A stretch of DNA of 64,000 nucleotides from Bacteroidota bacterium (GTDB lineage Bacteria > Bacteroidota > Bacteroidia > UBA8524): assembly GCA_008933805.1 (NCBI GenBank), contig WBUH01000008.1:62001-126000 (forward strand). Reading direction: 5' to 3'. The notes below the pieces were generated by a model. It saw only the letters and a program-made list of their open reading frames with translations, was not told the origin of the DNA and did no database searches. Position numbers and translations under genes: made by a program. How positions within the stretch are numbered: position 1 is the stretch's first letter; each line of letters begins with the position of its first letter. Of this stretch, positions 43,836-48,666 are shown in pieces.

Positions 43836-44435
43836 TTACTTCCTGCCAAACAGCTTAGGAAACAAGAAACCGGTGGCCTTTTTATACTCTGCGTAACCGC
43901 TCCCCATTTTACGTTTTAGCACCTCTTCCTCTACTGGAATCCTTACTACACATAATGCCGTAAACGGAACCAAAGCGCAAACACCTATCAGCCAGTTACC
44001 GGCCACAAGCGTGCACCCAAGCATAACCGTGTACACTGATGTGTATATGGGATGCCGCATATAACCATACACCGTTTCTTTAGCTAAATGAGGATTATGA
44101 CCGATTTCAGGCCCGCTCCACCAATTATCATCAAAATTGTCTTTAGAGATAAAAAACAACGCCAAACCCAACTGGTAAATAAACAGCCCCACAAAGCGCA
44201 CCACCGTTGATATACTCACATTTGCCCAATCTAACAGGTCGGAAGAAACATACAGTGCTTGCGGAACGGTAAAACCCAAAAGTGTGAGTATCAGCAGCAC
44301 AAAAGCTGACCGCCGTAAAGGTGTATTCAATTCAATACCGTCTTCCTGTCTTTTGTATTTTCTAAGGTACTTGCTAATAATCACTAAATACAAAAGCAAT
44401 AGCACCCCCGACAGGCCCTTGTAAAACCATTCCAT
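43836..44435 (-). CDS. ICMT/PEMT-like membrane methyltransferase
   Basis: A 199-residue integral membrane protein with about five hydrophobic helices. The C-terminal half carries the isoprenylcysteine carboxyl methyltransferase / phospholipid methyltransferase signature: GYMRHPIYTSVYTVMLG around residue 125, and RIPVEEEVLKRKMGSGYAEYKK near the end, which forms the SAM-binding site. The bacterial substrate is unknown; lipids or small thiols are possible. Monocistronic, convergent with the lipoprotein gene. Confidence 0.82.
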   Translation of the reverse strand: MEWFYKGLSGVLLLLYLVIISKYLRKYKRQEDGIELNTPLRRSAFVLLILTLLGFTVPQALYVSSDLLDWANVSISTVVRFVGLFIYQLGLALFFISKDNFDDNWWSGPEIGHNPHLAKETVYGYMRHPIYTSVYTVMLGCTLVAGNWLIGVCALVPFTALCVVRIPVEEEVLKRKMGSGYAEYKKATGFLFPKLFGRK

Positions 44436-44790: not shown

Positions 44791-44820
44791 AAAGGTGCAA
44801 CTCATACTTGCACCTTTTTT
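44791..44820 (+). terminator. Orphan intrinsic terminator inside a divergent intergenic region
   Basis: A 10-bp stem AAAGGTGCAA / TTGCACCTTT with a 7-nt loop CTCATAC, directly followed by TTT on the plus strand. Both neighbouring annotated genes are transcribed away from it, so it must end some other plus-strand transcript: a small RNA, a leader peptide or an attenuated upstream start. Confidence 0.7.
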
Positions 44821-44890: not shown

Positions 44891-44909
44891 ATTTGGAATT
44901 AATCTAAAT
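44891..44909. promoter_or_regulatory. 19-bp palindrome overlapping the -33 element (Fur-family-like operator)
   Basis: ATTTGGAATTAATCTAAAT is an imperfect 19-bp palindrome; 14 of the 18 non-central positions are symmetric. Its length, A/T-rich centre and GAAT/ATC core resemble Fur/PerR-family operators. It covers the TTTG of the promoter, so a bound repressor would block RNA polymerase. Downstream genes (imelysin-like protein, TonB receptor) fit iron control. The assignment to Fur is inference. Confidence 0.45.
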
Positions 44910-44971: not shown

Positions 44972-46111
44972 ATGAATAAAAAAACAGGGTTACTAAGCGT
45001 ATTAGCTGCTTGCCTACTTTTGGCAACTTCTTGTAAAAAAGACGATGATTCAAACGATACAAAAGCATCACTATCCATTCCTTCAAGCTATGTATCCGCT
45101 GATTACGCTGCAAACGTAACCACTGAAACAGCTCTTAAAACCCAACTTAGTGGTTTAAGCACTTACATGAAAACTGCTGAAAGCGGAACAACTGCATTAG
45201 ACCTTGCGACTCTTAAAGATAAATTCAGTACAGGCGCTACAGGGTTAAAAAATGTAACCGGAGCTTATTACATCACCCGTATCGAAAACGATTGGTTCCC
45301 AGTGATGGTTGCTGCAAGCGCCAACACTTATGACCCTGCAAACGGAGCAACTGCTACTAATGGAGGTTCATTTGGAAACCGTTTGGTTGATAAAGGAGCA
45401 AAAGAGAACTTACAAGAAATTGAAAAAGGTTTGTATGCTGCAGCCTTGTATAATCACCTTGTAACTGTGAGCGAAGGCACACTAAACCAAGCTGCCGTTG
45501 ATAAAATGATTAGCGTAGTAGGTGCAAGCCCTGCTTTCCCAAACACTAATACTGCTGCAAACACAAACAGCCCCGATGCATTATTGGCATTGTACATGGC
45601 TCGTCGTGATAAAAACGACGGAGCAGGCTTTTATGGTCAAATGAAAGCTAACTTTTTGAAGTTGCAAGCTGCCGTAAAAGCGGGAGCAGATTATAATACT
45701 GAGAAAAACGAAGCGATTGCCGCTATTAAACTAAACATTGAAAAAGGCTTGATGGCTACCGCCGTTAACTACGGATATGCTGCAATTACAAAGTTCTCAA
45801 CTACCAACCCTCCTGTAACAACCCTTTCAGGCGGTTTGCACGATTTGGGTGAAGCTATCGGCTTTATACACGGGTTTAAGGCAGTTGCCCAACAACACCG
45901 CAAAATTACCGACGCACAGATTGACGAGATACTTGCACTGCTAAACGCTCCTGTTAATGCAGATGCTACCGTATATAAATTTATTACCGAAGGTGCTTCT
46001 GAACTGCAAAGGATTACACAAGCCCTGGCCAAAATTAAAGCGGTATATGGCTTTACCGATGCAGAGATGAACGACTTTAAACAAAACTGGATTTCAGTTC
46101 AAGGTCGTTAA
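44972..46111 (+). CDS. DUF4856 lipoprotein
   Basis: A 379-residue lipoprotein with lipobox LATSC (Cys21) followed by an acidic/Lys linker (KKDDDSND). The body is largely alpha-helical. DUF4856-type signatures include the N-terminal YVSADYAANV segment, LVDKGAKENLQEIEKGLYAAALYNHL, and a C-terminal GGLHDLGEAIGFIHGFK with a conserved His. The family is restricted to Bacteroidota-like genomes, has no known reaction, and typically sits beside imelysin and TonB receptor genes, as here. It is the first gene of the operon. I infer a surface or periplasmic role in metal acquisition. Confidence 0.82.
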   Translation: MNKKTGLLSVLAACLLLATSCKKDDDSNDTKASLSIPSSYVSADYAANVTTETALKTQLSGLSTYMKTAESGTTALDLATLKDKFSTGATGLKNVTGAYYITRIENDWFPVMVAASANTYDPANGATATNGGSFGNRLVDKGAKENLQEIEKGLYAAALYNHLVTVSEGTLNQAAVDKMISVVGASPAFPNTNTAANTNSPDALLALYMARRDKNDGAGFYGQMKANFLKLQAAVKAGADYNTEKNEAIAAIKLNIEKGLMATAVNYGYAAITKFSTTNPPVTTLSGGLHDLGEAIGFIHGFKAVAQQHRKITDAQIDEILALLNAPVNADATVYKFITEGASELQRITQALAKIKAVYGFTDAEMNDFKQNWISVQGR

Positions 46112-46114
46112 TAG

Positions 46115-46166
46115 TATTTTTGCACTTTATTAGTCCCATCCCGTTAGGTAATCCCTGATGGGATGG
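46115..46166 (+). promoter_or_regulatory. Intercistronic -7 box and stem-loop between the DUF4856 and imelysin genes
   Basis: TATTTTTG (46115-46122) matches TAnnTTTG. It is followed by two alternative 7-bp stems formed by TCCCATCCC (46134-46142) and GATGGGATGG (46157-46166). There is no T-run, so it is more likely a processing or partial-attenuation element, or RNA stabiliser, than a full terminator. No -33 TTG is visible. Confidence 0.4.
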
Positions 46167-46181
46167 ATTGTTTAAACACAG

Positions 46182-47288
46182 ATGAATTACAAAAGAATTG
46201 CGCTAAGGATGTTGTTGCCTGTAATAGCACTGCCAATGCTGTTTACAATGGGCTGTAAGGAGGATAATAACGATGGCAATACTGCCGGCAACTTTGACAG
46301 GAAGTTATTGCTTGAAAACTTTGCCGACAATATTATCATCCCATATTGGGGAAAGATGAAAACGGCTACAGATGCACTTAGCACCGCAGCCGATGCACTA
46401 ATTGCAACCCCAAACACAAGCACCTTGCAAGCTACCCAAACAGCTTGGACAAATGCTTACACTGCTTGGTTGTACTGTAATTCATTTAACTACGGCCCGG
46501 GTGAAAAACCGATTTTCGGGATGGTAAACGAAAATATTGGCACATGGCCTGTGAGTGCAGGGGTTGTAGAAAACCGCATTGCTGCTGCCGATTTTAAATT
46601 TGACGATTTTAGGCGTGACAGCAGGGGGTTGCTCACCGTTGAGTATTTGTTGTTTACCCCAACCGCCTTAGACTCGCTTACAGCCTCATCAAACCGCAGA
46701 CAATACCTACAAAAAGTAATCGCGGATATTAAAACATGGGTAGATGAAAACAACACCGGTTGGACTACCTACCGCAATGCTTTTGTTTCAAACACTGATA
46801 AATCAGCAGGAAGCCCTACATCAATGCTTTACAATGAGTTTGTAAAAAGCTTTGAGGCAATAAAGAACTTTAAGATTGCTGTACCGGGCGGCAAACGTGC
46901 CGGCCAAGCACAACCTGAACCCCACCTTTGCGAAGCCTATTACAGCGGCCAATCAATTAAATTTATCAAAGAACATTTTAAGGCCGTGGAGCAGATGTGG
47001 CGAGGTATTGGTGCCAACGGTACCGATGGAATAGGTTTTGATGATTACCTTGATAAAGTAACAGGGGGTGCTGCGCTAAAAACAGAAACACTTAAGCAGC
47101 TTACCGCAGTTAACAATGTAAACAAAGGATTTGCGGATAGTGAACTTCTTGCCCATTTAGTATTAACTGAGACCGGACGAATTGATACCCTGCATACTGA
47201 ATACCAAAAGATGACCCGCTTTTTTAAGAGCGACCTTTCATCATTGTTGGGCATAGCCATTACATACAGCAGCGGAGATGGCGATTAG
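46182..47288 (+). CDS. Imelysin-like lipoprotein
   Basis: A 368-residue lipoprotein (lipobox FTMGC, Cys25) of the imelysin / IrpA-like family (M75-like), alpha-helical proteins linked to iron uptake. Family marks are WTNAYTAWLYCNSFNYGPG (about 89-107), IGTWP (about 119-123) and RGLLTVEYLLF (about 148-158). The M75 motif GxHxxE reads G149-L-L151-T-V-E154, so the His is lost and Glu is kept. This argues against the proposed peptidase activity and for a binding role. The 3' end overlaps the next gene by 11 bp. Confidence 0.87.
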   Translation: MNYKRIALRMLLPVIALPMLFTMGCKEDNNDGNTAGNFDRKLLLENFADNIIIPYWGKMKTATDALSTAADALIATPNTSTLQATQTAWTNAYTAWLYCNSFNYGPGEKPIFGMVNENIGTWPVSAGVVENRIAAADFKFDDFRRDSRGLLTVEYLLFTPTALDSLTASSNRRQYLQKVIADIKTWVDENNTGWTTYRNAFVSNTDKSAGSPTSMLYNEFVKSFEAIKNFKIAVPGGKRAGQAQPEPHLCEAYYSGQSIKFIKEHFKAVEQMWRGIGANGTDGIGFDDYLDKVTGGAALKTETLKQLTAVNNVNKGFADSELLAHLVLTETGRIDTLHTEYQKMTRFFKSDLSSLLGIAITYSSGDGD

Positions 47289-48666
47289 TATCGCCCGATA
47301 CATAAAAAACAGTGTTACTGCGTGGCAAGCAACTACGCATATTGCTCCATTGGCTGCTTTCAGAGTTATTTTCGGGCTGTGTATGGTATTTAGCACCACA
47401 CGCTTCATGGTGCTGGGATGGATTGAAGACCACTACATCACCCCTAAACTACATTTCAAATACTTTGGCTTTGAGTTTATAGAGGTTGCCTCTCCCGCAG
47501 CATTGTATGCAATCCACATAGCATTGCTTCTTGCATCAATATTAGTAACGCTCGGGTTGTTCTACAGAGTTGCGGCATGGGTACAATTTCTGTTGTTCAC
47601 CTATACAGAACTTATTGACCTCACCTACTACCTCAACCACTATTACTACGTCAGCCTTGCGTGCCTGCTACTGGCAGTACTGCCCGCCCACCGTTATTTT
47701 TCGCTGGATATACTTCGCAAACCCTCACTAAAAACCACCTATGTTCCAGCATGGTGTATTTATGTGATAATGCTGCAAACAGCTATTGTTTACACCTATG
47801 CCGGATTAGCCAAAATAAATAGCGATTGGTTATTGCATGCTTTGCCACTGAAAATATGGCTACCCGCATCGTATGACATACCCGTATTAGGCCCTTTGTT
47901 CGCTTGGAAATACACCCCCTACATTTTTAGTTGGGTAGGGATGCTGTACGATTGCACCATCGTTATTTTTCTGCTGTATAAACCTACCCGCGTTTGGGCA
48001 TATGCTGCGGTGGTATTCTTCCATGCTGTAACGGGTATTTTATTCCAAATCGGTGTGTTCCCATTGGTAATGATTGGCGGCACCTTAATCTTCTTTAGTG
48101 CTCAATGGCATTTGCGTTGGATGGGAGCAATAACACGTCTTTTCAAAACACCTGAAAAAACAGAACGTAACGTTACCTTTGCCCCTTCGTTCCTGCACAA
48201 AAAACTACTATTGCCGGCACTGTGCGTGTACTTTGCCTTTCAGCTATTGTTTCCGTGGCGGTATGTATTGTACCCCGGCAATATGTTTTGGACGGAAGAA
48301 GGTTACCGCTTTGGCTGGCGGGTGATGCTGATGGAAAAAGCAGGCACGGCTACCTTTTTTGTAAAAGACACAAAAACAGGCAAAGAAGGCGAAGTGTTTA
48401 ACAGCTTTTTTTTATGCGACCACCAAGAAAAACAAATGGCTATGCAGCCCGACATGATACTGCAATACGCCAAGTTTTTAGCTGGGTATTACGAAAAAGA
48501 AGGTGTTTACCAACCCCAAGTACGGGCAGAAGTTTACGTAACCCTTAATAGCAGAAAAAGCCAACTGTTGATAGACCCAACCGTTGATTTGAGCAAAGTG
48601 AAAGACAGTTGGGGACATAAAGAATGGATTTTACCTTTTGATGAAAGGCTTGCCGAGACAAAGTGA
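47278..48666 (+). CDS. Vitamin K-dependent gamma-glutamyl carboxylase homologue (HTTM family), full length
   Basis: A 462-residue membrane protein with an HTTM domain (about 15-290) and a C-terminal lumenal/periplasmic-type domain (about 335-455), the full architecture of animal GGCX. From memory of the human enzyme, its active-site residues align: N120-H121 in YLNHYYY (human His160), K179 in AGLAKINSDW (human Lys218, the base that deprotonates vitamin K hydroquinone), and H249 in FFHAVTGILFQIGVF (human His287). Spacing between the first two is 58 residues in both. The C-terminal part keeps GYRFGWRVMLM, TGKEGEV and LLIDPTVDL, matching GGCX segments. It should use reduced quinone, O2 and CO2 to carboxylate Glu residues, if active. 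It overlaps the imelysin gene by 11 bp and the TonB receptor by 4 bp. Menaquinone as cofactor is inference. Confidence 0.85.
   Translation: MAISIARYIKNSVTAWQATTHIAPLAAFRVIFGLCMVFSTTRFMVLGWIEDHYITPKLHFKYFGFEFIEVASPAALYAIHIALLLASILVTLGLFYRVAAWVQFLLFTYTELIDLTYYLNHYYYVSLACLLLAVLPAHRYFSLDILRKPSLKTTYVPAWCIYVIMLQTAIVYTYAGLAKINSDWLLHALPLKIWLPASYDIPVLGPLFAWKYTPYIFSWVGMLYDCTIVIFLLYKPTRVWAYAAVVFFHAVTGILFQIGVFPLVMIGGTLIFFSAQWHLRWMGAITRLFKTPEKTERNVTFAPSFLHKKLLLPALCVYFAFQLLFPWRYVLYPGNMFWTEEGYRFGWRVMLMEKAGTATFFVKDTKTGKEGEVFNSFFLCDHQEKQMAMQPDMILQYAKFLAGYYEKEGVYQPQVRAEVYVTLNSRKSQLLIDPTVDLSKVKDSWGHKEWILPFDERLAETK

What the first reader, a model, noticed from the sequence alone, without database searches (positions are those of the whole stretch)
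47278..48666. Full-length bacterial vitamin K-dependent gamma-glutamyl carboxylase homologue with intact active-site residues
The protein is not just an HTTM membrane domain. It also has the C-terminal domain of the animal enzyme, and aligns through segments such as AGLAKINSDW, FFHAVTGILFQIGVF and LLIDPTVDL. Residues equivalent to human His160, Lys218 and His287 (recalled numbering) are present as H121, K179 and H249, with matching spacing (58 and about 70 residues). The sequence is direct evidence for homology. Activity as a carboxylase, and menaquinone as cofactor, are inferences.
Basis: partly seen in the sequence, partly recalled or inferred. Interest (0 to 1): 0.8.

Follow-up and report, generated by a model that had tools for sequence, protein, structure and literature searches.

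The report
Vitamin-K-carboxylase-like enzyme in iron operon
This bacterial gene encodes a real relative of the human enzyme that uses vitamin K to modify blood-clotting proteins, but it is a shortened, already-annotated kind of relative, and it sits in a conserved operon that looks like an iron-uptake system, which suggests what to test for its unknown bacterial job.

Summary
ORF 47278-48666 (462 aa) carries HTTM (PF05090, 4.5e-71) plus the VKGC lumenal domain (PF22777, 4.8e-57). It matches human GGCX by sequence (1.5e-33; family profile 9e-83) and predicted fold (pLDDT 94.9, TM up to 0.85; only GGCX structures significant). H121, K179 and H249 equal H160, K218 and H287.

Two corrections. It is not full-length: it matches GGCX 51-504 of 758 and lacks the rest of the propeptide-binding region and the Arch-like domain. 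K218 and H287 equivalents also occur in all nine HTTM proteins tested outside the VKGC type, so they do not prove carboxylase activity. K217 is Ala.

The context says more. The gene is third of four: DUF4856-type lipoprotein, imelysin, VKGC, TonB-dependent receptor, with a 17/19 match to a published Bacteroidota Fur box 62 nt before the first. This unit recurs across Bacteroidota, Kapaibacteria and Ignavibacteria. In 296 genomes DUF4856 and VKGC co-occur in 59. A like-annotated set is Fur-regulated in Riemerella (published).

Best reading: a periplasm-facing, menaquinol-driven GGCX-type enzyme serving iron acquisition, perhaps modifying the co-encoded lipoprotein. Chemistry and substrate are inferred. 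Known family; the operon link appears under-described.

The parts
44891..44909 (+). Fur-box match ATTTGGAATTAATCTAAAT, 17/19 to the Riemerella anatipestifer Fur box
   Evidence: only place in the window with up to 3 mismatches, 0.08 expected; conserved upstream of related operons; consensus from PMC5609570
44892..44922 (+). Bacteroidota-type promoter match TTTG-N19-TAAGTTTG, overlapping the Fur box
   Evidence: read from the sequence; consensus from general knowledge; not tested against chance
44972..46111 (+). DUF4856-type lipoprotein (379 aa; lipobox Cys21), first gene of the operon; candidate substrate
   Evidence: no Pfam hit itself; syntenic homologue in L005 hits PF16148 2.9e-6; C21, K152, Y208, H290, E294 invariant; all-helical model without PDB match
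46182..47288 (+). imelysin-like lipoprotein (368 aa), GxxxxE variant of the GxHxxE motif
   Evidence: PF09375 2.3e-30; motif profile
47278..48666 (+). VKGC/GGCX homologue (462 aa)
47335..48108 (+). HTTM transmembrane domain, residues 20-277
   Evidence: PF05090
47635..47640 (+). N120-H121, equivalent to human N159-H160
   Evidence: invariant
47812..47814 (+). K179, equivalent to human K218 (catalytic base)
   Evidence: invariant
48022..48024 (+). H249, equivalent to human H287
   Evidence: invariant
48199..48645 (+). VKGC lumenal (periplasmic) domain, residues 308-456
   Evidence: PF22777
48663..51110 (+). TonB-dependent receptor (815 aa, FecA/siderophore type), start overlapping the VKGC stop
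   Evidence: PF00593 and PF07715; TIGR01783 122 bits, below its 223.5 cut-off; overlap seen

Best explanation
The protein is an inner-membrane enzyme of the GGCX (vitamin K-dependent carboxylase) family with its active site facing the periplasm, encoded as the third gene of an operon with a Fur box (DUF4856 lipoprotein, imelysin lipoprotein, VKGC, TonB-dependent receptor). Most likely it oxidises menaquinol with O2 through K179 and uses the resulting strong base to gamma-carboxylate Glu residues of an exported partner of the same operon. The best guess for the partner is the DUF4856 lipoprotein, second the imelysin or the receptor; the product would carry Gla-type metal ligands used in iron capture or hand-over. 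Shown: homology, predicted fold, conserved pocket residues, gene order, Fur-box match, co-occurrence with DUF4856. Inferred: iron regulation in this organism, quinol oxidation, carboxylation, the substrate, and the use of Gla for iron.
For: Sequence and fold match only GGCX among solved structures. Vitamin K-pocket residues are kept in the window protein and nearly or fully invariant in 77 relatives: N120, H121, K179, W184, G221, F248, H249, F256, F261, plus M350 (95%) and Y343 (77%); their roles in GGCX are from PMC12589487. The genome has menD and haem-copper oxidases, consistent with menaquinol and O2. Operon conservation in loci of the window's clade with enough flank: imelysin upstream 64/72, DUF4856 56/72, TonB receptor downstream 101/112; 0/14 for the other clades. 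In 296 phylum genomes VKGC and DUF4856 (E<1e-30) are together in 59, VKGC alone in 9, DUF4856 alone in 1; imelysin occurs without VKGC in 9. Fur box in the window and in many relatives; Fur homologues are present. A set annotated TonB receptor - VKGC - imelysin - hypothetical is Fur-regulated in Riemerella anatipestifer (PMC5609570). DHOR di-haem proteins join the operon in L004 and L005, and imelysins are tied to iron uptake and di-haem peroxidases (PMC3143127).
Against: No Gla-domain-like Glu cluster stands out in the partners: maximum 4 Glu per 40 residues in DUF4856 and imelysin, 7 in the receptor; the Glu-enriched patch of DUF4856 (residues about 137-155) is only partly conserved and weak in the window protein. 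K217, which couples substrate binding to the active site in GGCX, is Ala; N158 and R436, which hold the Gla-domain backbone, are Leu and Gln; the distal propeptide-binding region and Arch are absent. No VKOR was found in the genome to recycle an epoxide. K218 and H287 are superfamily-wide. The Leptospira homologue was, as I recall, reported to epoxidise vitamin K without carboxylating protein (paper not held).
Confidence: 0.45

Rival explanations
1. The protein keeps the quinol-oxidising (epoxidase or monooxygenase-like) half-reaction but is not a protein carboxylase; it uses menaquinol and O2 for another oxidation or deprotonation in the iron system, for instance on a partner protein or an iron-chelate ligand.
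For: The quinone pocket is kept while several substrate-side residues and the distal propeptide-binding region are not. K218 and H287 are shared with HTTM proteins lacking the lumenal domain, which argues for a wider common chemistry. Di-haem oxidoreductases sit in some of these operons. Recalled, unchecked: the Leptospira homologue has epoxidase but no carboxylase activity.
Against: N120, H121 and (mostly) Y343, which contact the Glu side chain in GGCX, are retained, and the proximal lumenal domain is well conserved.
Confidence: 0.3
2. The substrate is not a protein of the operon but a secreted peptide or a small molecule such as a chelator taken up through the TonB receptor; the DUF4856 and imelysin lipoproteins only bind or pass it on.
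For: No Glu-dense target in the partners; animal-type propeptide recognition elements are missing; the receptor is FecA/siderophore-like.
Against: DUF4856 of this type almost never occurs without VKGC, whereas VKGC clades without the iron genes exist; no peptide or chelator biosynthesis gene is linked in the window.
Confidence: 0.12
3. The protein has no catalytic role and is a membrane scaffold or assembly factor for the lipoproteins and the receptor.
For: HTTM proteins are poorly characterised; gene overlaps suggest coupled expression and perhaps complex formation.
Against: Buried pocket residues of an enzyme are invariant over 77 sequences with 28-60% identity.
Confidence: 0.08

Closest known systems
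Animal gamma-glutamyl carboxylase GGCX (human; structures 9bvk, 9bur, 9l6q, 9wf3 and others)
   Same: Transmembrane fold, proximal lumenal domain, vitamin K pocket residues N159, H160, V210, A214, K218, W223, G259, F286, H287, F294, F299, Y395, M402
   Different: Ends at the equivalent of residue ~504 of 758; no rest of the propeptide-binding region or Arch; K217 to A, N158 to L, R436 to Q, S398 to G, M401 to V, no C99-C450 disulfide; no VKOR in the genome; lies in an iron-type operon
Bacterial proteins annotated vitamin K-dependent gamma-carboxylase, e.g. Riemerella anatipestifer RAYM_09784
   Same: Listed beside an imelysin, a TonB-dependent receptor and a hypothetical protein; Fur-regulated (PMC5609570)
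   Different: Only a table row in that paper (its only mention of carboxylase); sequence not compared here
Leptospira vitamin K carboxylase homologue
   Same: Bacterial glutamyl carboxylase homologue, presumed horizontally acquired (PMC4555120)
   Different: Activity recalled as epoxidase without carboxylase; sequence and neighbours could not be compared here
Stand-alone bacterial VKGC paralogues (beside ribF in Flavobacteriaceae; other solo copies)
   Same: Same two domains and invariant N-H, K, H; about 30-36% identity
   Different: No imelysin/TonB/DUF4856 neighbours (0/14); ribF-linked copies have Asn at N158 like human; they fall on the GGCX side of the tree with modest support and a long GGCX branch
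Imelysin/EfeO-type iron-uptake loci (PMC3143127)
   Same: Imelysin lipoprotein, TonB receptor, sometimes a di-haem oxidoreductase
   Different: Carries DUF4856 and VKGC; that paper's main text does not mention carboxylase or vitamin K
HTTM proteins outside the VKGC type
   Same: Equivalents of K218 and H287, often N-H
   Different: Not matched by PF22777 in the same genomes; much weaker HTTM scores (E about 1e-4 to 1e-11 against below 1e-67)

Membership tests
VKGC/GGCX family (PF05090 + PF22777) | HTTM transmembrane domain followed by the VKGC lumenal domain, above curated cut-offs | tested here: met
   239.9 bits and 192.6 bits against cut-offs of 27.7
VKGC/GGCX family (PF05090 + PF22777) | GGCX fold | tested here: met
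   AF2 pLDDT 94.9; Foldseek E down to 2.4e-22, TM by query length 0.70-0.85, only GGCX significant
VKGC/GGCX family (PF05090 + PF22777) | catalytic base K218 and Glu-pocket N159/H160/Y395 | tested here: met
   K179, N120, H121, Y343 aligned; K179, N120, H121 invariant in 77 sequences.
Animal-type vitamin K-dependent carboxylase (GGCX) | complete propeptide-binding domain, Arch-like domain, K217 coupling | tested here: not met
   Alignment ends at human ~504 of 758; K217 is Ala
Animal-type vitamin K-dependent carboxylase (GGCX) | Glu carboxylation coupled to vitamin K epoxidation | not testable with these tools
   needs an enzyme assay or proteomics
Animal-type vitamin K-dependent carboxylase (GGCX) | VKOR for the vitamin K cycle (pathway partner) | tested here: not met
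   No PF07884 match in the 97.7%-complete assembly; newly made menaquinol could substitute
Fur-regulated iron-uptake operon | Fur box at the promoter | tested here: met
   17/19 match at 44891-44909; conserved upstream of related operons
Fur-regulated iron-uptake operon | iron-dependent expression | not testable with these tools
   Published only for the like-annotated Riemerella genes (PMC5609570)
Imelysin (PF09375), neighbour gene | M75 domain with GxHxxE motif | tested here: inconclusive
   Domain 106.6 bits, above cut-off; His replaced by Leu151, E154 kept, as in the GxxxxE variant described in PMC3143127

The most novel reading that the evidence does not exclude
A dedicated bacterial Gla system: a menaquinol-driven carboxylase that converts Glu of a co-encoded, co-occurring lipoprotein family (DUF4856) into Gla to build a metal site for outer-membrane iron acquisition, operating without a VKOR-based vitamin K cycle.
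Probability: 0.2. Interest if true: 0.88.

Novelty: new member of a known kind. Interest (0 to 1): 0.5.

Why it matters
The role of bacterial homologues of the blood-clotting carboxylase is, to my knowledge, open. The conserved DUF4856-imelysin-VKGC-TonB unit with a Fur box gives a concrete growth condition (iron starvation), a concrete candidate substrate and a short list of residues to mutate. If confirmed, vitamin K-dependent carboxylation would have a bacterial role in iron uptake.

Tried and rejected
(1) A Gla-domain-like Glu cluster in the operon partners: none stands out. (2) A fold clue for the DUF4856 lipoprotein: confident model but no significant PDB match. (3) 'The conserved K and H prove carboxylase': rejected, because HTTM proteins outside the VKGC type keep K218 and H287 equivalents. 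(4) The degenerate imelysin GxHxxE Glu as a Gla site: rejected, because it is Asp in about a quarter of the sequences. (5) A VKOR-based vitamin K cycle in this genome: not found. (6) The published Leptospira enzyme paper: not held, so its reported activity is recalled, not checked. (7) Pocket geometry: model coordinates are not readable by script. (9) NCBIfam has no model for the protein.

Full report
Observation. The ORF at 47278-48666 is real and encodes 462 aa. Pfam gives HTTM (residues 20-277, 4.5e-71) and the VKGC lumenal domain (308-456, 4.8e-57). A single-sequence search of all PDB chains returns only human GGCX (1.5e-33); a 77-sequence profile gives 8.9e-83, the next unrelated hit having E 7.9. 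The AlphaFold2 model (mean pLDDT 94.9, pTM 0.92) matches 16 PDB entries significantly, all GGCX, with TM up to 0.85 by query length.

Active site. Mapped on human numbering, with residue roles from PMC12589487: N159/H160 = N120/H121, K218 = K179, W223 = W184, G259 = G221, F286/H287 = F248/H249, F294 = F256, F299 = F261, Y395 = Y343, M402 = M350, V210 = V171, A214 = A175. Most are invariant or nearly so in 77 relatives of 28-60% identity; Y395 is Tyr in 77%. Differences in the window protein: K217 is Ala178, N158 Leu119, R436 Gln386, S398 Gly346, M401 Val349, C99 and C450 both Phe. In GGCX, K217 couples substrate binding, and N158 and R436 hold the Gla-domain backbone. So the quinone pocket and the Glu-contacting core are kept while substrate-side contacts differ.

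(i) The protein is not full length: similarity ends at GGCX residue about 504 of 758, and TM by target length is 0.55-0.61. The proximal lumenal domain is there; the rest of the propeptide-binding region and the Arch-like domain are not. (ii) Nine HTTM proteins from Bacteroidota genomes that score weakly for HTTM (E about 5e-6 to 4e-11), i.e. not of the VKGC type, all keep the K218 and H287 equivalents, and six keep N-H. These residues mark the wider HTTM superfamily and cannot by themselves be read as carboxylase activity. The alignment of these remote sequences is approximate.

Surroundings. The gene is third of four co-directional genes: a lipoprotein (44972-46111), an imelysin-like lipoprotein (46182-47288, overlapping the VKGC start by 11 nt), the VKGC homologue, and a FecA-like TonB-dependent receptor whose GTG start overlaps the VKGC stop. 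The first protein has no Pfam hit itself, but its syntenic homologue in L005 hits DUF4856 (2.9e-6). A terminator-like hairpin with a T-run lies upstream at 44791-44817, and a 13-bp stem lies between genes 1 and 2 at 46136-46166 (pattern scans only).

Conservation of the operon. Homologues of the four proteins were mapped in 80 named loci plus genome-derived loci. For the clade of the window protein, where enough flank is held, an imelysin lies upstream in 64 of 72, DUF4856 in 56 of 72 and a TonB receptor immediately downstream in 101 of 112. In 14 loci of the other bacterial VKGC clades all three are absent. The operon occurs in Bacteroidota, including Kapaibacteria as named in the records, and in Ignavibacteria. 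In several Saprospiraceae and relatives extra genes are inserted; in L004 and L005 these were checked and are a second imelysin and a di-haem oxidoreductase (DHOR, PF06537).

Co-occurrence. In 296 genomes drawn from the phylum, VKGC (PF22777) is in 68, DUF4856 of this type (E<1e-30) in 60, both in 59; Fisher p 3e-51. The p value ignores shared ancestry. The DUF4856 profile was built from VKGC-linked members, and eight weaker DUF4856-like hits lie in genomes without VKGC, so the association is with this subtype. Imelysin (PF09375) is in 70 genomes, 9 of them without VKGC.

Regulation. The published Riemerella Fur box ATTTAGAATTATTCTAAAT (PMC5609570) has one location in the window with at most 3 mismatches (0.08 expected): 44891-44909, 2 mismatches, 62 nt before the operon start. 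It overlaps a TTTG-N19-TAAGTTTG promoter match (read; consensus from general knowledge). Of 58 upstream regions of DUF4856 genes, 36 reach 16/19 or better against 0.05 expected from mononucleotide shuffles. The window's site is among the five best locations in the whole genome, and the genome has two Fur-family proteins. In Riemerella, consecutive genes annotated TonB receptor, vitamin K-dependent gamma-carboxylase, imelysin and hypothetical are Fur-regulated. Iron regulation here is therefore likely, by inference.

Chemistry. menD and haem-copper oxidases are present, so menaquinol and O2 chemistry are plausible. No VKOR domain was found, so an animal-type vitamin K cycle is unlikely; an epoxide would have to be reduced otherwise or lost.

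Substrate. Topology taken from GGCX puts the active site on the periplasmic side, through which both lipoproteins and the receptor pass. DUF4856 is the favoured candidate because of the co-occurrence, but no Gla-domain-like cluster is seen, and the confident all-helical model has no solved relative. The imelysin next to VKGC usually lacks the His of GxHxxE while keeping an acidic residue, Glu in 73% and Asp in 27%; since Asp cannot take a gamma-carboxyl group, that position is not a convincing target.

Evolution. In a maximum-likelihood tree the operon clade (63 rows) separates from a group containing stand-alone bacterial copies and human GGCX (supports 92/85 and 90/85; GGCX branch 4.35, so its place is unsure). 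The ribF-linked copies have Asn at the N158 and N290 positions as in human. The window protein is therefore probably not the closest bacterial relative of GGCX.

Known or new. Bacterial members of this family are already annotated (Pfam PF22777; the Riemerella table; a Leptospira homologue mentioned in PMC4555120). Searches of the held library found no paper that discusses the link between VKGC and imelysin/DUF4856 iron operons beyond that table; subscription literature was not searchable. The family is known; the operon link is the useful addition.

Noticed in passing
L115-L120, L128-L130: Second, stand-alone VKGC homologues in same-family genomes (f5, Flavobacteriaceae-like), each directly beside a homologue of the L119 ribF gene (FAD synthetase/riboflavin kinase), with the N-N-H motif of the human enzyme; function unknown.
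   Followed up: partly
L122, L123, L125, L126, L131: Further solo VKGC homologues on the GGCX side of the tree, without shared neighbours; L123, L125 and L126 carry a TEEGHRFxWxMKLRxKSC motif.
   Followed up: partly
L005:12691-14070: HmuY-domain protein with a Por secretion-system C-terminal sorting tail directly downstream of the TonB receptor of the VKGC operon.
   Followed up: no
L073: The complete operon in a MAG labelled Bradyrhizobiaceae; probably mis-binned Bacteroidota DNA.
   Followed up: no
L166:3563-6368: Two tandem DUF4856-type genes upstream of the imelysin-VKGC-TonB genes in G230.
   Followed up: no
window 46136-46166: Strong 13-bp inverted repeat between the DUF4856 and imelysin genes, perhaps an intercistronic stabiliser or attenuator.
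   Followed up: no
window 43836-44435 (-): PEMT/ICMT-type methyltransferase-like membrane protein just upstream of the operon on the other strand.
   Followed up: no
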